Below are positions 19,042 to 46,360 of a stretch of 64,000 nt of DNA, in pieces. The DNA lies in the NCBI RefSeq assembly GCF_000426625.1, contig NZ_KE384547.1, positions 1 to 64,000 of the forward strand, given 5' to 3'. Each line of letters opens with the position of its first letter. Position 1 is the first letter of the stretch. The notes below the pieces were generated by a model. It made no database searches, was not told the origin of the DNA, and worked only from the letters and a program-made list of their open reading frames with translations. A program made the position numbers and the translations under genes. The DNA comes from Psychrilyobacter atlanticus DSM 19335 (GTDB lineage: Bacteria; Fusobacteriota; Fusobacteriia; Fusobacteriales; Fusobacteriaceae).

Positions 19042-19111
19042 TTACTTTCTCTTGAAAGAAAGTAACAAAATTCAATGCTTTCCGATACTTTTCTCTTGAA
19101 AGAAAAGTATC
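19042..19111. repeat. Two tandem hairpins with the same loop
   Basis: Hairpin 1 (19042-19065) has arms TTACTTTC/GAAAGTAA. Hairpin 2 (19084-19111) has arms GATACTTTTC/GAAAAGTATC. Both enclose the identical 8-base loop TCTTGAAA. Hairpin 2 belongs to the larger repeat at 19077-19257. The stems differ while both stay perfectly paired. Confidence 0.75.
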
Positions 19112-19257
19112 CAAAAGTTCAAGACTCATTAAAAATTTCTACTCCGCAATAAAAAAGCCTGGAAAAATCAAATCGATGCTCAAATTTTAAGTAAGTCGTT
19201 GAGTATTTTCCTGGCTTCTTCTGCATGCTTCATTTACCAAATTTTTAAAATGTCATT
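19077..19257 (-). repeat. Structured intergenic repeat, copy A
   Basis: Related to 25744-25970. Shared blocks in order on the plus strand: GCTTTCYGATACTTTT, AAAAGTATCCAAAA, TTCAAGACTC, a long hairpin, then a conserved tail ending AATGTCATT. The hairpin arms (19155-19166 and 19206-19217) pair in 11 of 12 positions, and TCAA/TTGA (19168-19171, 19199-19202) extends the stem inside. On the minus strand the hairpin ends in six T residues and starts 49 bases past the stop of the 19267 gene, so it may also terminate that transcript. Confidence 0.75.
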
Positions 19258-19266
19258 TTTAAATTA

Positions 19267-20100
19267 TCACAAACCATTTATCTCCTTTTTAATTTTTTCC
19301 AGTAATCCTTTAGATTTATCTATTATTTCAAAACCTTTTCCATTCAAATTCATATCCAACAGATGATACTTCCACATTTCTTCCCATTTTTCTTCCCGCT
19401 GTGTTCCGAGAAGTTTCTCCCCTATACCTTCTATTATTTTTTTCATTTCTTTCTCGATCTCATCAGAAGGTATTTCTCCTTCTTTACATCTAACCATATT
19501 GTATATCTCTATATCTTTCTGTTTTAATTTTTCATTACCTTTAAGAGATTCAAATAAAACTTTTCTCTTCTTTTTATTTTTCAACAAATAATTATAATCT
19601 TCCAAAGTATCAACAAGCAATCTCTCCATTTTCAAAACATCTTCTCCAATATTATTTCCAAATTCCATTATTACATTTAAATTATTATCAATAAATTGAC
19701 TTTTAAATTTAGTAAACACTCTAGATTCTCCCTTATAACTACCCCAAGAAGTTAAATATAATAAATTAAGTTGCATGTTACGTGCACAATCATTCTTTTC
19801 CGCCCCTTTACTATTTTCTTCCAAGACAAACTTCAAATATTTTAAAATCCCTAATTTCCTCTCCCTCTCTTTTCTTTTTTCATCTTCCCTTCTATGTTTT
19901 TCCAACTTACGAAGTTGATAATAAACTCCTACCAAAGTCAAAATAGCTCCTATATACCCTCCTAAAAATCCTAAATGTTCACTATCTTTAACTATAATAA
20001 AAATAAATTTTGGTATTAATACAAATATGATTATTCCCCAAAATAGTATATATTTACGATTCTTTTTTATCCATTTAATTTCTTCAGAAAATCGTTTCAT
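19267..20100 (-). CDS. Membrane-anchored coiled-coil protein, function unknown
   Basis: 277 residues. The ATG at 20100 is chosen because GGGAGG lies five bases before it; an upstream in-frame start at 20142 lacks one. Two hydrophobic segments (about 17-38 and 46-67) are followed by a highly charged lysine/glutamate-rich helix (about 70-95), then a soluble alpha-helical domain to the end. No catalytic motif or family was recognised. Charge and layout suggest a cytoplasmic domain tethered to the inner membrane. It stands alone between the S10 promoter region and an amino-acid permease and may be accessory. Confidence 0.7.
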   Translation of the reverse strand: MKRFSEEIKWIKKNRKYILFWGIIIFVLIPKFIFIIVKDSEHLGFLGGYIGAILTLVGVYYQLRKLEKHRREDEKRKERERKLGILKYLKFVLEENSKGAEKNDCARNMQLNLLYLTSWGSYKGESRVFTKFKSQFIDNNLNVIMEFGNNIGEDVLKMERLLVDTLEDYNYLLKNKKKRKVLFESLKGNEKLKQKDIEIYNMVRCKEGEIPSDEIEKEMKKIIEGIGEKLLGTQREEKWEEMWKYHLLDMNLNGKGFEIIDKSKGLLEKIKKEINGL

Positions 20101-20251
20101 ACCCACCTCCCTGCACCCTGAAATAATTCCACTATAATACACTTACTCTTTTCTAAGGTTTTTCCTCTTAAACTGCTAATATCCTGCACTTTAGCTCCAC
20201 CTTGATCAAGGAAGAAACTATCAAAAGGGAGAGATCTAAAACCAGACAACT

Positions 20252-20285
20252 AAAAAAAGGACTGGAAAACCAATCCAATCCTTTT
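20252..20285 (-). terminator. Terminator of the amino-acid permease gene
   Basis: Stem aaaaggactgg / ccaatcctttt with one internal mismatch. A run of seven T residues follows on the minus strand, just past the permease stop codon. Confidence 0.8.
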
Positions 20286-20295
20286 AATTATAATT

Positions 20296-21660
20296 CTATT
20301 TTGAAGACTTCAATTTATTTAAAAACCCCAAGGCAATAACAACTGCCGAGATCATTATATACAATACTGCCTTATCGTTACTCAAGAAAAACGCCACGAT
20401 TACAAACATTTGTCCTATCGCTGCTATGATTGGAGCAACCAAACCCTGGAATTTATTAACTTTCTTTTCTACAAATAATTTAAAAGAAATAAAGAATACC
20501 AATAAATAAAATGCCGAATTTAACATCATTGGGATGTCATCAATTGTAATCCCTTTTAAAGCTTCGACACTTCCAGTAGATTGGAGTGCATACAGACTGA
20601 TATACATCAAAGTTCCAACAAATATGAATTTCGACGCATTAAATGGTGTACCTGTTTTTGAAAGTTGCTTTAACTTATCTGAACCAATTAGGTGTGCATC
20701 ACACGCTAATTTATGCGTATAACAAGTTCCTGCCATAAATATTGCATTGGCTGTCCCTAATACAGATATTAAAACACCTGTTAACACTAATTTTTCACCC
20801 ATATCTCCAAATAAATTTCTAGCAATCATTCCAACATGAGAATCTCCATATTTCAATATATCCGCCGGTGACATCAACGCATTCACTCCTACAAAATAAG
20901 CTATATAGATAACCGATGTAATAACTACCGACCATACAAATATAAAGGGAAGATTCTTTTTTGGATCCTCTATATCTTTTGAAAGAGCTCCAACTGATAT
21001 CCACCCATCGAACGCAAATGCCATAGATAACATCGGCGCAAACAAAAGTGCTAGTGTCGTAGGTTCTTTCTCAAATATATTCGGAAGCACATGTGCTGAT
21101 AACTCTCCTGGATTTCCAAATATAATTCCTGCTACAGCTATCACTATCAATGGAATTACTTTTATAGATGTTGAAGTAGCTGAAATTGTTGCTGCTATCT
21201 TTGTAGACACTTTATTCCATACGAACATTGCAACAAGTAATCCTATAGCTATCCCGTGAATCACTATTGGCGACCCATTTATTCCAAACAACTGAGAAAA
21301 ATACCCTGCAAATACAATTGAAACAATCCCTCCTAAAATCGGAGCATAAACTACTATCTGATACCAACCAATTATAAACTCTAAAGTTCTACCTATTTTT
21401 TCTCCAAACCATTTTGAAAAATAGTGCCCGATATAACCGACAAATCCGCCTTCTATATTTTCTTGTGATGCTATTCCTGCAATAGCAACTCCTGCAAATA
21501 TTAATGTAGTTGCTGTTATTAACCAAGCTAGTATTGATATAACTACATTCCCTCCTGTGACACCGATAATATTATCAGCCCTAAAAAATATCCCTGACCC
21601 CACCATAAATCCTATAGCAGTCAACAACGCTTTACTCTTAGATATTGTTTGTTTTTTCAC
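20296..21660 (-). CDS. APC-family amino-acid permease
   Basis: 454-residue inner-membrane transporter with about 12 hydrophobic segments. The first helix has the APC substrate motif region AIGFMVGSGIFFRADNI, and FAFDGWISVGALSKDIEDPKKN matches the conserved helix 6-loop region. It resembles SteT/YfnA-like exchangers, but the substrate cannot be read from sequence. GTG at 21660 is preferred, nine bases after AGGAGG; a TTG one codon earlier is also possible. Single-gene unit with its own promoter and terminator. Confidence 0.87.
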   Translation of the reverse strand: MKKQTISKSKALLTAIGFMVGSGIFFRADNIIGVTGGNVVISILAWLITATTLIFAGVAIAGIASQENIEGGFVGYIGHYFSKWFGEKIGRTLEFIIGWYQIVVYAPILGGIVSIVFAGYFSQLFGINGSPIVIHGIAIGLLVAMFVWNKVSTKIAATISATSTSIKVIPLIVIAVAGIIFGNPGELSAHVLPNIFEKEPTTLALLFAPMLSMAFAFDGWISVGALSKDIEDPKKNLPFIFVWSVVITSVIYIAYFVGVNALMSPADILKYGDSHVGMIARNLFGDMGEKLVLTGVLISVLGTANAIFMAGTCYTHKLACDAHLIGSDKLKQLSKTGTPFNASKFIFVGTLMYISLYALQSTGSVEALKGITIDDIPMMLNSAFYLLVFFISFKLFVEKKVNKFQGLVAPIIAAIGQMFVIVAFFLSNDKAVLYIMISAVVIALGFLNKLKSSK

Positions 21661-21706
21661 CAAAATTTTCCTCCTATAAAATAAATTTGTATTTTTTTTA
21701 CTGTCT

Positions 21707-21735
21707 AATATAACATTCACGCCTAATTTTGTAAA
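21707..21735 (-). promoter_or_regulatory. Promoter of the amino-acid permease gene
   Basis: Minus strand: TTTACA (21730-21735), 17 bases, TATATT (21707-21712) with TG one base upstream. It lies between the recX terminator and the permease start. Confidence 0.65.
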
Positions 21736-21779
21736 CTTTTTTTCATTATAGTGAACATTTTTGTATTTTTATGCAAAAA

Positions 21780-21809
21780 AAAGGATTAGACTCTTTAGTC
21801 TAATCCTTT
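21780..21809 (-). terminator. Terminator overlapping the recX stop codon
   Basis: Perfect 13-bp stem (aaaggattagact / agtctaatccttt) with a 4-base loop, followed on the minus strand by eight T residues. The last codons of recX and part of its stop codon form the upstream arm and loop, so no 3' untranslated region separates gene and terminator. Confidence 0.92.
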
Positions 21810-22355
21810 CATCACATCCAGTATATCCCCTAATTTAAAACCTCTCCTCATAAAATAGGCAACCTGTTTATCCCTCTCTTTATTCTTTACCTTATAAAAT
21901 AAATCTGAAATCATCTTCTTCTCGTCCACTTTCTCCTCACCATAGATACTTTCTATAGTGGAGGAGTCTATTCCTTTAAGATGAAGTTCATACTCTATCC
22001 TCTTTCTGCCTAAGCTTTTTTTAGAATTTATATAAGACTCCGCATAACTGTAGTCATCTAAGTACCCTAACTCAGATAATTTAGAAATCACTTTTTGCAA
22101 TTGACCTTCAACTGCGGAACTTCTCTTATATTTCATTCTGAACTTTTGCAGAAGTTCCCTTACCGTATAATCACGTTTAGACAATAAAAAATACGATTTT
22201 GAAAGAGCCGAATCATAGATGATATTGTGATATTCTTCTATACTAATCTCACCATCAGTTTTTATCCCATATTTAGCCTTTATATCTCTATTTATATCTA
22301 TGACTTCATCATTTTCGAGATATACCTTATTCTTCTGAAATTTCAGTATTTTCAT
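21795..22355 (-). CDS. recX: RecA regulatory protein RecX
   Basis: 186-residue cytoplasmic modulator that blocks growth of RecA filaments. The family's three-helix repeats are visible: [20 protein letters not shown], then [20 protein letters not shown] and the [13 protein letters not shown] end. The start lies inside recA, overlapping its 3' end by 29 bases, so RecX is translated from the recA message. Confidence 0.92.
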
Positions 22356-23394
22356 TTACAACCTTTTCCTCTATTACTGGATATAAAATCACATTTACTT
22401 CTTTCTCTATCTGACCTAAAAGATCCTTATCTTCCTCTAATCTAGCTTTTACATTCTCTCTACCTTGACCCAATCTAATATCCCCATAACTAAACCATGC
22501 TCCTGATTTGGCTACAATATCATTCTCAATACCTAGATCTAATATTTCTCCTACTCTGGAAATTCCTTTTCCATACATTATTTGAAACCCTGCTTCTTTA
22601 AATGGAGGAGCTATCTTATTTTTAGTTACCTTTACCTTAGTTTCATTACCTAAAATATCGTCACCTTGTTTTACAGATCCAACTCTTTTTATCTCAAGTC
22701 TTACCGATGAATAGAATTTTAGTGCCCTACCACCTGTTGTTGTTGTTTGAGGTCCAAATCCAAATCCGCCAATTTTTTCCCTTATTTGGTTGATAAATAT
22801 CATAGTAGTTTTCGATTTATTCAGGTTAGCTGTCAATTTTCTTAACGCCTTAGACATCAATCTTGCCTGTAATCCCATTTGCTGGTCACTCATCTCACCA
22901 TCGATCTCGACCTTTGGTACCAATGCTGCTACCGAGTCAACAACTATTATATCCACTGCTCCTGATCTTACTAACATATCCGCAATTTCCAATGCTTGTT
23001 CCCCAAAATCAGGTTGAGATATCAATAATTCTTCTACATCCACCCCTAAAGCCTTTGCGTATTTAGGATCTAGTGCGTGTTCTGCATCTATAAACGCAGC
23101 TATTCCACCCATCTTCTGTGCTTCTGCTATAGCATGAAGAGCTATAGTTGTTTTACCTGAACTCTCAGCCCCATAAACCTCAACAACTCTACCTCTAGGA
23201 AATCCTCCTAGTCCCAATGCTCTATCTAAATTTATACTTCCAGTAGGTATTACCTCTACATTCATATGGGCATTTTCTCCCATTTTCATTATAGACCCAT
23301 CACCGTATTCTTTCTTTATCTGTTTCATCGCAAGTTCTAACGCTTTATTTTTATCTACCGTTTCTTTTTTCTTAGTCATTTTTTCTTTAGCCAT
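22327..23394 (-). CDS. recA: Recombinase RecA
   Basis: 355-residue DNA-dependent ATPase for homologous recombination and SOS activation. Walker A is GAESSGKT (75-82), with [10 protein letters not shown] as the Walker B region and the NQIREKIG loop nearby. [17 protein letters not shown] is the conserved DNA-binding region. ATG start at 23394. Downstream recX overlaps. Confidence 0.98.
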
Positions 23395-23426
23395 CTTTTC
23401 ACCTCATTTGAATTTTCTTTATAAGA

Positions 23427-23462
23427 ATAGTTTACTATATTATCCCCTTCTTTACAATTAAA
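23427..23462 (-). promoter_or_regulatory. Candidate recA promoter with overlapping palindrome
   Basis: Minus strand: TTTAAT (23457-23462), 17 bases, TATAGT (23434-23439). A 12-base inverted repeat ATAGTTTACTAT (23427-23438) covers the -10. No known LexA box (Gram-positive CGAAC or E. coli CTGT type) was found, so the operator idea is speculative. Confidence 0.35.
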
Positions 23463-23552
23463 GTTATATCAATATATATATACCTTTCACCACTTAATAC
23501 AGATAATCCCAGCTATACCTGATTAAACTAAAGAAAAAATTTATACCTCACA

Positions 23553-23584
23553 TTAAAAAACCACCAAGATCGGTGGTTTTTTAA
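23553..23584. terminator. Bidirectional terminator between tRNA cluster and recA
   Basis: Perfect 13-bp stem (ttaaaaaaccacc / ggtggttttttaa) with a 6-base loop. It is the second of two hairpins after the tRNA operon. Confidence 0.85.
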
Positions 23585-23646
23585 TTATTATTTAATATAT
23601 ACCCTGAATTTATAAAGTCTAATCTTATAACTATTAAAAATTAAAA

Positions 23647-23668
23647 AAACCAGTCAAAAGACTGGTTT
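23647..23668 (-). terminator. Terminator of the tRNA operon
   Basis: Nine-bp stem (aaaccagtc / gactggttt) with a 4-base loop, followed on the minus strand by a T-run. It lies 14 bases after the tRNA-Cys CCA end. Confidence 0.85.
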
Positions 23669-23682
23669 AAAATTCTATAAAT

Positions 23683-23756
23683 TGGAGGCGACGACCAGAT
23701 TCGAACTGGTGATGGAGATGTTGCAGACCTCTGCCTTACCACTTGGCGACGTCGCC
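23683..23756 (-). tRNA. tRNA-Cys (GCA)
   Basis: Cloverleaf reads on the minus strand with a seven-base acceptor stem GGCGACG/CGTCGCC. The anticodon loop CTGCAAC has GCA, the T-loop is TTCGAAT, and the CCA is encoded. Last of four tRNAs in one transcript. Confidence 0.95.
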
Positions 23757-23783
23757 GTTATTTATTATTAATCTTATATAAAA

Positions 23784-23860
<77 letters not shown>

Positions 23861-23867
23861 TCATATA

Positions 23868-23944
<77 letters not shown>

Positions 23945-23968
23945 ATAGATGATATATAAGATTTTAAA

Positions 23969-24044
23969 TGGTGCTCACAACTGGACTTGAACCAGTGACC
24001 CCCTGCTTGTAAGGCAGGTGCTCTCCCAACTGAGCTATGCGAGC
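23969..24044 (-). tRNA. tRNA-Val (TAC)
   Basis: Acceptor stem GCTCGCA/TGTGAGC with one G-U pair, anticodon loop CTTACAA with TAC, T-loop TTCAAGT, encoded CCA. First tRNA of the operon. Confidence 0.95.
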
Positions 24045-24067
24045 TTTCGTTTTTTCAGAACTCATTT

Positions 24068-24096
24068 AGTATACTATAAGTGGTTTTTGTTTGCAA
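24068..24096 (-). promoter_or_regulatory. tRNA operon promoter
   Basis: Minus strand: TTGCAA (24091-24096), 17 bases, TATACT (24068-24073), about 24 bases before tRNA-Val. A/T tracts upstream resemble an UP element. Confidence 0.75.
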
Positions 24097-24348
24097 GTTT
24101 TTTTTTACTTTTTTTTAAAAAAACTATTTTTTTTTCTATAAAAAACGATTTTTTTTGAAAATCAATAGAAAATAATCAGCCTAACCCCTTGTAAAGCCTA
24201 GCATCTAATCCATCTATGTGATTTTCACCGAATATGTAAATTATAATTATAATTTTCTAAAAAAAATCAAATAATTTAACCTTCTAATTAATAATTAATA
24301 ACTTTTTTCGTCCTTTGTATAATTCAAACTAAAGTTTTCCTGTCCACC
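24097..24348. other. A/T-rich spacer between two divergent promoters
   Basis: Homopolymeric A and T runs, no supported gene, no RNA motif recognised. It separates the tRNA promoter (minus) from the PhoH-type gene promoter (plus). Confidence 0.5.
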
Positions 24349-24377
24349 TTGCCATTTGACATATTAAATACTATACT
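24349..24377 (+). promoter_or_regulatory. Promoter of the PIN/PhoH gene
   Basis: TTGCCA (24349-24354), 17 bases, TATACT (24372-24377), 29 bases before the ATG. A nearby TTGACA (24356-24361) is not correctly spaced from any -10. Confidence 0.65.
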
Positions 24378-24406
24378 TGTATCAACAAAATTAGGAGGTA
24401 TAACTC

Positions 24407-25741
24407 ATGAACTCATACATAGTCGATACTAACGTTATAATTGCCAACCCATTCTTTATGAGGGATTTTAATGATTGTGAGATAATCATTCCTATCTACG
24501 TACTAGAAGAATTAGATAAAATTAAATCTAGAGAAGGAAACAGTGGATTTCGTGCCAGACAATTTTTTAGATTTTTTAAAGAGATCGAAAAAACTGGAAA
24601 CCTTATAGAAGGAATAGCAATCAATAATAAGGTTATTTTAAAAACAGAGATTCAGGGTGACCTTTCCCTTATTCCCAATGGTTTGGACCCAAACTATGTG
24701 GATAATAAGATCTTAGCCCTTATGATGATGGCAAAATATAAAGAAAAAACCCTTTTAACTAACGATGTCAGTATGAGGGTCAAAGCTTCCTCCCTGGGGA
24801 TAAAATGCCTTATCTTAGATGCTTCTGATAAACATAAATTAGATGATCTCTATACAGGGGTTATCACTTGTGAGGTTACCTCTGAGATGGTAAAAAAATT
24901 CTATACAGCTAAGGAGATCTCCCTAGAAGACCTAAAAATTAATTCTATGAACCCCAACCAATTTTTTTATGGCTATACAGAATTTTCATACAACCAGATT
25001 GTTGGTAAATTTGATGAAAAAAGAAATAAGGTTATAAGATTAAAATATGATGACGCCAAAATATACGGGATTTCTCCTAAGGATGTCAGACAAAAATTCG
25101 CTATCGACGTTCTTCTTGATCCCAAGATTCCATTTATAACAATCACCTCCAGGCAGGGGTGTGGTAAAACTCTTTTAGCAGTTGCAGCAGCCTTGGAGCA
25201 GGTATTAGAAGGCAGTCGTTATGAAAAGATATTGATCGGTAAAAATACGGCACCTGTAGATAAGTGGAGTTACCAGGGATTCACTACTGGAGATACTGAA
25301 GAGAAATTATTGACCCATTTTGCCAACTACACCACTACTTTTGAAAACATTCAGCATTTGAGAGGAAAAAAACCTCGTAAAGGGGTAGAAATTTTACAGG
25401 GATTGATGGATCAGGATAAGGTAGAAGTTTTGGATATCTCCTCTATTCTGGGATCAAGTTTTCTCAACAAAATAGTTGTAATAGATGAAGCCCAATCATT
25501 TGATATCCACGCTATGAGATCTATGATCACTAGGATAGGAGAAGGGAGTAAGTTGATTCTAATAGGGGATATCGCTCAGCAGACAATCTCTAGATTAGAT
25601 CCAGACAAATCAGGTCTCTACGCATCTATTGAATGGCTGAAAAAGCTCCCAGAAACTGCCCATATCACATTAAATAAAGTTCATAGAAGTGAATTTGTAG
25701 ATAAAGCCAGCTTGATCTTTGATAAGAAGATTTTTGGATAA
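24407..25741 (+). CDS. PIN domain / PhoH-family ATPase (YlaK-like)
   Basis: 444-residue cytoplasmic protein. The N-terminal PIN nuclease-type domain (about 1-140) has acidic residues D7 (VDTNV), E35 region (VLEELD) and D120 (LLTNDVSMR). The C-terminal PhoH ATPase domain (about 225-444) has Walker A SRQGCGKT (248-255) and Walker B KIVVIDEAQ. The PIN-PhoH2 fusion is a known family thought to act in RNA metabolism; the substrate here is unknown. ATG start with AGGAGG at 24393-24398. A structured repeat begins two bases after the stop. Confidence 0.9.
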   Translation: MNSYIVDTNVIIANPFFMRDFNDCEIIIPIYVLEELDKIKSREGNSGFRARQFFRFFKEIEKTGNLIEGIAINNKVILKTEIQGDLSLIPNGLDPNYVDNKILALMMMAKYKEKTLLTNDVSMRVKASSLGIKCLILDASDKHKLDDLYTGVITCEVTSEMVKKFYTAKEISLEDLKINSMNPNQFFYGYTEFSYNQIVGKFDEKRNKVIRLKYDDAKIYGISPKDVRQKFAIDVLLDPKIPFITITSRQGCGKTLLAVAAALEQVLEGSRYEKILIGKNTAPVDKWSYQGFTTGDTEEKLLTHFANYTTTFENIQHLRGKKPRKGVEILQGLMDQDKVEVLDISSILGSSFLNKIVVIDEAQSFDIHAMRSMITRIGEGSKLILIGDIAQQTISRLDPDKSGLYASIEWLKKLPETAHITLNKVHRSEFVDKASLIFDKKIFG

Positions 25742-25743
25742 AA

Positions 25744-25970
25744 GCTTTCTGATACTTTTTTTGATCCACGAATACCCAATTTATTTCTATTGAAAAAAAT
25801 TAAGATGTGGAATAAAAGTATCCAAAAATTCAAGACTCTACAAAAATTATTATTTCATAATTAAAAAAGATTAGAAAAATCGAATCGCTTGCTTAAATTT
25901 ACTGCAAGTCGTCGAATATTTTCTAATCTTTTCTCTCATATTTCATCTATATAATTTTTATAATGTCATT
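25744..25970 (-). repeat. Structured intergenic repeat, copy B
   Basis: Diverged second copy of 19077-19257, longer because about 50 bases are added inside the first hairpin, whose outer arms are GATACTTTT/AAAAGTATC. The main hairpin arms (25867-25878 and 25919-25930) pair in 12 of 12 positions, with TCGA/TCGA (25880-25883, 25912-25915) inside. Compared with copy A, at least three arm pairs and one inner pair have changed on both sides. Read on the minus strand it ends in six T residues and lies past the stop of the EamA gene. Confidence 0.75.
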
Positions 25971-26057: not shown

Positions 26058-26981
26058 TTATGCAATTTTATGTTTAAGTTCAAACTTTTTTTGAATATAT
26101 CTCGGGAAGACAATTCCAAATAAAATTATTAAAATTCCAACCCACTGAATCATCGATGAACGTTCATGTAATATCGTCACAGAGGCCAGTGTGGCTACTG
26201 GAAGCTCTATCGATGCAAGGATCGAGGTTAAACCTACCCCAACAACAGGAACACCTATTGAAAAAAACAACGGTGGGATAATCGTTCCAAATAAGGCTAC
26301 TGCTACCCCATACTTTAATAGTGGTAAAACTATTTTAATATCTCCAAGAAATGTAGGTGGGAATAAAACCACTATAAAAGTAAGAGCTCCTGTCAGCATT
26401 AATGCACTTCTTTGAATTGGATCCACATTTAAAGCTACTTTCCCACTAACAAAGGTAAAAGCTGTATATGAACATGCTGCAAGAAGTCCATAGACTATAC
26501 CTAAAAATGTTAAACTACTCAATCCCCCATCAAAAACATTAGATGAAAATGCTGTTCCTATTAAAAGTAATATAATCGATATCACCTGAGTCTTAGAAGG
26601 CAATTTTTTTTCCAAAACACACTCCACTAAATTTCCCATCCATGTAAATTGAAAAAGTAACAATATAGCCATTGAAGCTGGAATTTCCTGAACAGATTTA
26701 TAATAAATTATACTGGTCAATCCAATTGGAATCCCTGTAAATATCAATTTTATTGCTTCACTTCTATTAAAATTTATCCTATATTCTTTATTTATTAATT
26801 TTTTAAAAAACACCATAAGCCATAAAACTAAACACCCTATTCCTGCTTGAGAAAATACAATCTGTCCCAATGTAAATCCCTCACCATAAGCCAGTTTCAC
26901 AAAAGTTGAAAGAACCCCATAACTCACAGCACCCAATAAAACAAAGATAATATACTTCGTTGTTGATTCATTTTTTTCCAT
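26058..26981 (-). CDS. EamA-family (DMT) transporter
   Basis: 307-residue protein with about ten membrane helices formed by two EamA repeats (about 10-145 and 155-300). FQFTWMGNLVECVLEKKLPS ends the first repeat and SIELPVATLASVTILHERSS ends the second. The substrate is unknown; the family includes exporters of amino acids and metabolites. ATG at 26981 has AGGAGA upstream; the frame is open to 27041, but that part runs through a terminator hairpin. The hairpin at 27013-27039 may limit its expression. Confidence 0.85.
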   Translation of the reverse strand: MEKNESTTKYIIFVLLGAVSYGVLSTFVKLAYGEGFTLGQIVFSQAGIGCLVLWLMVFFKKLINKEYRINFNRSEAIKLIFTGIPIGLTSIIYYKSVQEIPASMAILLLFQFTWMGNLVECVLEKKLPSKTQVISIILLLIGTAFSSNVFDGGLSSLTFLGIVYGLLAACSYTAFTFVSGKVALNVDPIQRSALMLTGALTFIVVLFPPTFLGDIKIVLPLLKYGVAVALFGTIIPPLFFSIGVPVVGVGLTSILASIELPVATLASVTILHERSSMIQWVGILIILFGIVFPRYIQKKFELKHKIA

Positions 26982-27012
26982 CTTTCCATCTCCTAATTTT
27001 TTAATAATTCTA

Positions 27013-27039
27013 TAAAAAAAAGGGCACACATGTGCGCCC
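27013..27039 (-). terminator. Terminator just upstream of the EamA gene
   Basis: On the minus strand GGGCGCACATGTGTGCCC forms a strong hairpin with one A-C mismatch and is followed by eight T residues. It may simply end the nadABC transcript. It lies only about 30 bases before the EamA start codon, so it could also attenuate that gene. Confidence 0.8.
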
Positions 27040-27189
27040 ATAGAAAGAAGATTTTTGCTCTTCTAGTAGATACTCTTTTAGCATATTTAAAAGATTATAT
27101 GGAATTACTTATTTTTATATCCATTAAAAACAGTACCATAATTCCCAAACTTTTTCAATCTTTATAAAGCTCTAGTACCTACTAAAAAA

Positions 27190-46308: not shown

Positions 46309-46337
46309 ATTAAATATAATTTTTTTGTACTCGTCAA
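46309..46337 (-). promoter_or_regulatory. Candidate gyrA promoter
   Basis: Minus strand: TTGACG (46332-46337), 17 bases, TTTAAT (46309-46314). A small hairpin (tgtcc/ggaca, 46263-46276) lies in the leader. Confidence 0.5.
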
Positions 46338-46360
46338 TCGGGAGAAGATAGGTCATTTAT

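What the first reader, a model, noticed from the sequence alone, without database searches (positions are those of the whole stretch)
19077..25970. Structured intergenic repeat present twice with compensatory base changes
Seen: 19077-19257 and 25744-25970 share ordered blocks (GCTTTCYGATACTTTT, AAAAGTATCCAAAA, TTCAAGACTC, a long hairpin, a tail ending AATGTCATT). The hairpin arms differ at several sites, yet paired positions change together: in the 12-base arms (19155-19166/19206-19217 against 25867-25878/25919-25930) three C-G or G-C pairs become A-T or T-A pairs, and TCAA/TTGA becomes TCGA/TCGA. Both copies lie past minus-strand genes and end in six T residues in that direction, but conserved sequence continues beyond the T-run. 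Inference: a family of structured elements (non-autonomous mobile repeat, or a conserved 3'-UTR/sRNA), not merely two terminators.
Basis: partly seen in the sequence, partly recalled or inferred. Interest (0 to 1): 0.72.

Follow-up and report, generated by a model that had tools for sequence, protein, structure and literature searches.

The report
Dispersed folded repeat with covarying pseudoknot
Two intergenic sequences in this bacterium are copies of a scattered repeat whose folded shape, a long stem plus a small knot, has been kept by paired changes, and the same knot-forming hairpin turns up in several other bacterial phyla, so it looks like a widespread folded RNA element whose purpose is still unknown.

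Summary
The two copies (19077-19257, 25744-25970) belong to a dispersed family: 11 covariance-model hits in this genome and hits in 9 of 61 genomes, the own included. In 81 aligned copies 32 of 37 stem pairs change on both sides (587 double-changed cells against 168 after shuffling). Mismatches indicate that the minus strand folds (A.C tolerated, G.T not), fitting an RNA read leftwards or, less likely, a single DNA strand. The head recurs in records titled Bacteroidota, Clostridia and Proteobacteria; in one Pseudomonas genome it lies 3' of 9 of 10 fetched TwoAYGGAY RNAs. Loops and tips differ between species at orthologous sites; one site has a plain hairpin in relatives. No linked transposase was found. 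Best reading: a non-autonomous, modular repeat selected as folded minus-strand RNA, in this genus mostly in 3' regions of genes. Transcription, termination and mobility are inferred.

The parts
19077..19257 (-). copy 1 of the element (folded strand = minus)
19084..19111 (-). head hairpin P1 of copy 1, 11-bp stem, loop CTTGAA (plus-strand letters) at 19095-19100
   Evidence: sequence; fold
19118..19124 (-). pseudoknot strand TTCAAGA (plus-strand letters) complementary to TCTTGAA at 19094-19100 in the P1 loop
   Evidence: cross-phylum test
19123..19254 (-). long stem P2 of copy 1, closed by GAC/GTC
19042..19066 (-). extra head-type hairpin next to copy 1; short loop here, long loop at the orthologous place in G007
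25744..25970 (-). copy 2 of the element
25751..25822 (-). head hairpin P1 of copy 2 (arms 25751-25759 and 25814-25822) with a long hairpin cap in the loop
   Evidence: sequence; fold
25762..25811 (-). loop cap (TGATCCACGAATAC..GATGTGGA), itself a dispersed repeat
25829..25834 (-). pseudoknot strand TTCAAG of copy 2; its usual loop partner is replaced by the cap
   Evidence: sequence
25834..25967 (-). long stem P2 of copy 2, closed by GAC/GTC
19267..20142 (-). gene whose 3' end lies 9 bases right of copy 1
   Evidence: ORF
24407..25741 (+). gene ending 2 bases before copy 2 (PhoH-type ATPase by recalled resemblance; no family search run)
   Evidence: ORF; orthologues
26058..27041 (-). gene whose 3' end lies 87 bases right of copy 2
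   Evidence: ORF

Best explanation
The element is one of a dispersed, non-autonomous, modular family selected for the fold of its minus strand. Read 5' to 3' on that strand it is: a long interrupted stem P2, then a short strand, then hairpin P1 whose loop pairs back to that strand (H-type pseudoknot). Shown: the copies, the paired changes, the covariation of loop and downstream strand, the strand asymmetry of mismatches, presence/absence at an orthologous site, different loop and tip modules at orthologous sites. Inferred: that the folded strand is RNA; that in this genus it is transcribed with the gene to its right as a 3'-region structure that can stand in for an intrinsic terminator or protect the mRNA end; and that copies spread by an unidentified machinery acting in trans (in Ilyobacter by riding in a MITE).
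For: Own genome 11 hits, all at E<=5e-10; hits in 9 of 61 genomes. Pair counts on 81 copies (78 distinct): 93.2% of cells paired vs 71.0% shuffled and at most 54.9% slid; 32 of 37 pairs with double changes; covariation score 0.524 vs 0.144 (the alignment was fitted to the model). Pseudoknot: in 122 unique cross-phylum heads >=5 bp loop complement in 51, shuffled mean 12.4, max 21 of 500 shuffles; in 46 unique family copies 38, shuffled mean 24.6, max 30 of 300. Strand: 43 copies under 85% identity, A.C 53 and G.T 17 cells; observed/expected 0.43 and 0.19, other mismatches 0.15; same direction in the own genus (0.46/0.14) and in G011 (0.49/0.25). Gene context: of 16 own-genus copies scoring >=120 bits, 14 have a minus-strand ORF to the right, and 10 of the 12 in tandem contexts read with the genes (four of the 16 are two orthologous pairs). 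Site 2: of six genomes read, G000 and G004 carry the element right after the stop codon, G007, G002 and G006 a plain hairpin, G003 such a hairpin plus an element tail.
Against: Over all 81 copies the orientation bias is weak (left/right ORFs -- 22, +- 15, ++ 14, -+ 4, others lack one side) and across phyla absent (++ 21, +- 16, -- 15, -+ 7 of 128). The T-run is missing in about 9 of 16 own-genus copies, and the terminator scan lists neither window copy (it allows loops of 3-8 only). A single DNA strand would show the same wobble asymmetry, and transcription-linked deamination could add to it. 6 of 81 aligned copies have no detectable P1, and the loop cap removes the loop partner in others, so the pseudoknot is dispensable at some sites. 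Target-site duplications of the family's own copies were not tested.
Confidence: 0.5

Rival explanations
1. A non-autonomous transposon whose folded single DNA strand is the substrate of a HUH-type (Y1, RAYT-like) or similar enzyme; the fold is kept because the enzyme reads it.
For: Dispersed copies, presence/absence, strand-specific fold; TnpA-REP enzymes process structured single strands (PMC8266576, abstract).
Against: No Y1_Tnp match in the own genome nor in G002 and G007; 11 of 23 genomes chosen for carrying the head or the family have none (two of the 23 are the same genome). Among 29 fetched Y1 loci (27 distinct) a head hairpin lies near one distinct locus only. Near 119 cross-phylum stretches no gene family recurs; the largest clusters (5 or fewer loci) are ORFs over the repeats or housekeeping genes. 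GTAG tag 0 of 134 heads and 0 of 81 family copies.
Confidence: 0.2
2. A cis- or trans-acting regulatory RNA platform with exchangeable tips, of which TwoAYGGAY (proposed CsrA-binding) is the version in some hosts.
For: Heads are linked in sense to AYGGAY-type hairpins: 17 of 121 vs 7 of 605 random windows, 1 of 121 in the opposite sense; 11 of 30 fetched TwoAYGGAY hits have a P1-type hairpin 3', 0 of 30 5', 10 of 600 random windows. CsrA proposal in PMC4333381 (passages read).
Against: No orientation or neighbour-gene preference across phyla; tens of copies in some genomes; the AYGGAY hairpin is in 0 of 81 copies of the family studied here; in G112 0 of 9 fetched TwoAYGGAY hits have P1.
Confidence: 0.2
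3. Plain intrinsic terminators that keep pairing for trivial reasons (template-switch correction of palindromes).
For: Plain hairpins stand in the same place in relatives; T-runs in both window copies.
Against: Conserved sequence beyond the T-run, closing stem and pseudoknot; T-run absent in many other copies; A.C and G.T should be equally tolerated under arm correction, but are not.
Confidence: 0.1

Closest known systems
TwoAYGGAY RNA (Rfam RF01731)
   Same: dispersed, 39 matches in G077 and 22 in G112 at E<=0.001; long outer stem; same folded strand relative to the head hairpin; a P1-type hairpin lies 3' of 9 of 10 fetched G077 matches
   Different: two AYGGAY-loop hairpins at the tip, in 0 of 81 copies here; the model as printed shows no P1 and no pseudoknot; the window and 10 loci with copies gave no match
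REP/REPIN (GTAG and CGTC palindromes)
   Same: dispersed extragenic hairpins; CGTC REPs are reported without a dedicated transposase (PMC3733652, passages and section 6 read)
   Different: REPs are 20-40 bp palindromes (abstract start) with a GTAG or CGTC tag; here ~175 nt, long stem plus pseudoknot, no tag
MITEs with terminal inverted repeats
   Same: non-autonomous dispersed repeats; in Ilyobacter the head lies just inside the ends of such an element
   Different: the Ilyobacter TIR occurs 28 times in the own genome against 12 for the control pattern, and 238 and 133 times in G020 and G031; no TIR was seen by eye around the copies here

Membership tests
TwoAYGGAY RNA RF01731 | match at or above the gathering score (43 bits) | tested here: not met
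   no match in the window or in 10 loci at E<=1
TwoAYGGAY RNA RF01731 | hairpins with AYGGAY loops at the tip | tested here: not met
   0 of 81 aligned copies
REP/RAYT | GTAG (or CGTC) tag at the foot of the palindrome | tested here: not met
   within 8 nt of 134 heads 0 GTAG and 1 CGTC; 0 of 81 family copies
REP/RAYT | cognate Y1 transposase in the genome or flanked by the repeat | tested here: not met
MITE | terminal inverted repeats and target duplication | tested here: inconclusive
   Ilyobacter TIR 28 vs 12 control in G000; no TIR by eye; target duplication of own copies not tested
intrinsic terminator | G+C-rich stem followed by T-run | tested here: inconclusive
   T-run in both window copies, about 7 of 16 own-genus copies (by eye); scan (loops 3-8 only) lists neither
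conserved structured RNA | compensatory changes beyond chance | tested here: met
conserved structured RNA | transcription | not testable with these tools
   no RNA-seq at hand

The most novel reading that the evidence does not exclude
The pseudoknot-plus-long-stem is the common core of one superfamily of mobile structured RNAs, not described in the literature searched here, that spans at least Fusobacteriota, Bacteroidota, Clostridia/Negativicutes and Proteobacteria, of which TwoAYGGAY is only one tip variant; it spreads as a folded strand and evolves by swapping hairpin caps between copies, a bacterial counterpart of SINE-like modular RNAs.
Probability: 0.3. Interest if true: 0.82.

Novelty: new variant of a known kind. 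Interest (0 to 1): 0.62.

Why it matters
Dispersed hairpin repeats are usually treated as DNA palindromes of little known use. Here comparative evidence says which strand folds, adds a covarying pseudoknot, and links a fusobacterial repeat to an orphan Rfam family and to a hairpin found in records of several phyla. That turns 'what are these repeats' into testable questions: is the minus strand transcribed, what binds the pseudoknot, and what copies it.

Tried and rejected
Y1/RAYT transposase as a linked mobiliser: rejected as a cis link. Shared neighbour gene at the 119 cross-phylum stretches: none. Rfam families other than TwoAYGGAY at the elements: none. REP tag: absent. Reverse transcriptase as mobiliser: RVT_1 matches in 5 of 6 genomes but not in G031 (I. 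polytropus, 28 family hits), so not required; not pursued. Phage records: no match of the Ilyobacter unit; plasmid records: I. polytropus plus two Pseudoalteromonas records over about 47 nt only. Oscillospiraceae copies with similar heads turned out to be parts of repeats longer than the stretch aligned and gave no boundary. The search for an autonomous partner of the Ilyobacter MITE by its TIR gave no clear pair over 1 kb among the listed places; the listing was partial. In one search the script's own test found no target duplication in 34 of 41 units; that the units stand between TA dinucleotides is my reading of the printed flanks. A first count of P1 3' of TwoAYGGAY with a near-fixed pattern gave 5 of 30; the later 11 of 30 allows covarying stems and was chosen after seeing that output. 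One search left out 6 of 81 copies without a detectable P1 and merged identical ones to 46; its shuffled baseline is high because many copies share one loop. One search dropped 2 of 134 heads with too little downstream sequence and merged the rest to 122. Papers: PMC2864571, PMC4333381, PMC11701678, PMC2267715 and PMC3733652 seen as passages (PMC3733652 also section 6), PMC8266576 abstract and outline; all others only in search listings. Literature searches showed no description of this motif in what was listed; one search listed 25 of 166 papers and 15 of 1,500, so this is weak evidence of absence. One search covered a guessed host genus (Psychrilyobacter, recalled, not established).
Full report
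1. Observation. The two window copies are real and alignable. blastn finds copy 2 from copy 1 at E 1.3e-22. Folding is better than in shuffled sequence on both strands.

2. Family. Nine copies were aligned; RNAalifold gave 37 pairs, 23 with a double change in at least one copy. A covariance model finds 11 places in the own genome, the weakest at E 4.9e-10; at least one further, enlarged copy (L025) is seen only by blastn. Hits occur in 9 of 61 genomes: the own, five of seven others of the genus, G011 (23 hits), G020 (30) and G031 (28); the other 26 same-family genomes and all 24 same-order genomes of other families have none at E<=0.01 with the stricter filters used. G031 is Ilyobacter polytropus: its unit lies on plasmid pILYOP01 at the same coordinates. 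G011 has the same Y1 places as G075, the genome of L172, titled Propionigenium maris.

3. Fold. On 81 copies 93.2% of cells pair, 32 of 37 pairs show double changes, 587 cells are double-changed against 167.7 in shuffles, and every slid register is far worse. The alignment was fitted to the model, and many Ilyobacter copies are near-identical, so counts are not independent events.

4. Pseudoknot. The head hairpin (for example GTTACTTTCT-CTTGAA-AGAAAGTAAC) is followed by C(C)AAA and a strand complementary to its loop. In the family the pairs include CTTGAA/TTCAAG, CTTGAT/ATCAAG, TGTCC/GGACA, CGTCC/GGACG, TGCCC/GGGCA and CACCC/GGGTG: 38 of 46 unique copies reach 5 bp, shuffled mean 24.6, max 30 of 300. 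Across phyla 51 of 122 unique heads reach 5 bp, shuffled mean 12.4, max 21 of 500; 32 of 122 reach 3 bp or less.

5. Which strand. In 43 copies under 85% identity, A.C cells (G.U on the minus strand) number 53 and G.T cells 17. Corrected for column composition, A.C is seen at 0.43 of expectation, G.T at 0.19, other mismatches at 0.15; the direction holds in the own genus and in G011 taken alone. So the minus strand is the one that must pair. RNA and single-stranded DNA both fit; mutation bias from transcription could contribute.

6. Context. In the 16 best own-genus copies the right-hand ORF is on the minus strand in 14. Over all copies and across phyla orientation is weakly or not biased; of 128 cross-phylum heads 33 fell inside a called ORF and 36 were too far from genes or at an edge (ORF calls are mechanical). 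At site 2, six genomes could be read: G000 and G004 have the element directly after the stop codon of the left gene; G007, G002 and G006 have a plain hairpin; G003 has such a hairpin and then an element tail with the same right flank as G000. G006 has a different gene beyond the site.

7. Modules. At orthologous sites parts differ: the hairpin beside copy 1 has a short loop in G000 and a long capped loop in G007; at the copy 1 site G002 has a ~66-nt extra hairpin at the tip and a different but paired stem. L066 (G002) has the short and L053 (G000) the capped loop, with flanks 84% and the element body 93% identical. L062 (G005) has a plain tip and L025 (G000) an enlarged one, with flanks 87% and 91% identical. 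The cap is itself dispersed in two genomes: 22 places in G000 and 45 in G002 against 0 for the reversed-pattern control; 10 vs 1 in G007; not above control in G006, G011 and G031. Flanking arms of 7 bp or more were found in 9 of 30 unique places against 63 of 1200 random positions.

8. Beyond the family. Rfam at E<=0.1 on 9 of these loci found only TwoAYGGAY, twice, next to the head on the minus strand, once above (51.9 bits) and once below (41.6) the gathering score of 43; at gathering score on 18 more loci, two hits (81.6 and 49.8 bits). AYGGAY-type hairpins lie within 260 nt of 17 of 121 heads against 7 of 605 random windows and 1 of 121 in the opposite sense; the tip motif AACTCGCTNCGCTCA in 6 of 121 against 0 of 605. 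In the reverse direction 9 of 56 genomes of one order have TwoAYGGAY at E<=0.001, 4 of 56 above the gathering score; of 30 fetched matches 11 have a P1-type hairpin on the 3' side (9 of 10 in G077, 0 of 9 in G112), 0 of 30 on the 5' side, 10 of 600 random windows. Whether all these heads share descent is not shown; a fixed pattern selects look-alikes, but it does not select loop complementarity.

9. Mobility. No linked gene was found. In Ilyobacter the head lies just inside the ends of a 388-689 bp element: of 41 fetched units 15 have a head hairpin at both ends, 26 at one, 0 at none; many were fetched because they carry the module, but the 10 printed units fetched by TIR alone (L084-L109) all have one as well. 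The TIR occurs 238 times in G020 and 133 in G031 against 3 and 9 for the control, and 28 against 12 in G000.

10. Verdict. A real, dispersed, modular, strand-specifically folded element with a covarying pseudoknot; most likely a minus-strand RNA in 3' regions in this genus, spread by unknown machinery. Function is inferred, not shown.

Noticed in passing
window 46327-46340, minus: another copy of the dispersed loop cap (CGATTGACGAGTAC, 1 mismatch to the pattern) lies elsewhere in the window, between different flanking arms (L395)
   Followed up: partly
L064, L065 and further units in G020/G031: Ilyobacter genomes carry many copies of a MITE with ends AAATTAYTGAATTTATC (238 ends in G020, 133 in G031) whose subterminal part is this head hairpin; its transposase was not found
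   Followed up: partly
L008, L009, L024, L026 (own genome): a second repeat family with the same head type (GTCTCTTTTCTC-TTGAAAG-AAAATGAGACGTAAAAGTTCAAGA) but a different body
   Followed up: no
L346-L375: TwoAYGGAY is a high-copy dispersed repeat in two of 56 Pseudomonadales-order genomes searched (39 and 22 matches), which sits oddly with its Rfam label Cis-reg
   Followed up: partly
L120, L126, L153, L191, L200, L210: Oscillospiraceae-titled MAG contigs carry several copies of a long repeat that contains the head hairpin
   Followed up: partly
window 27021-27122, minus: purine riboswitch aptamer (56.7 bits) overlapping the upstream end of the minus-strand ORF 26058-27041 near copy 2
   Followed up: no
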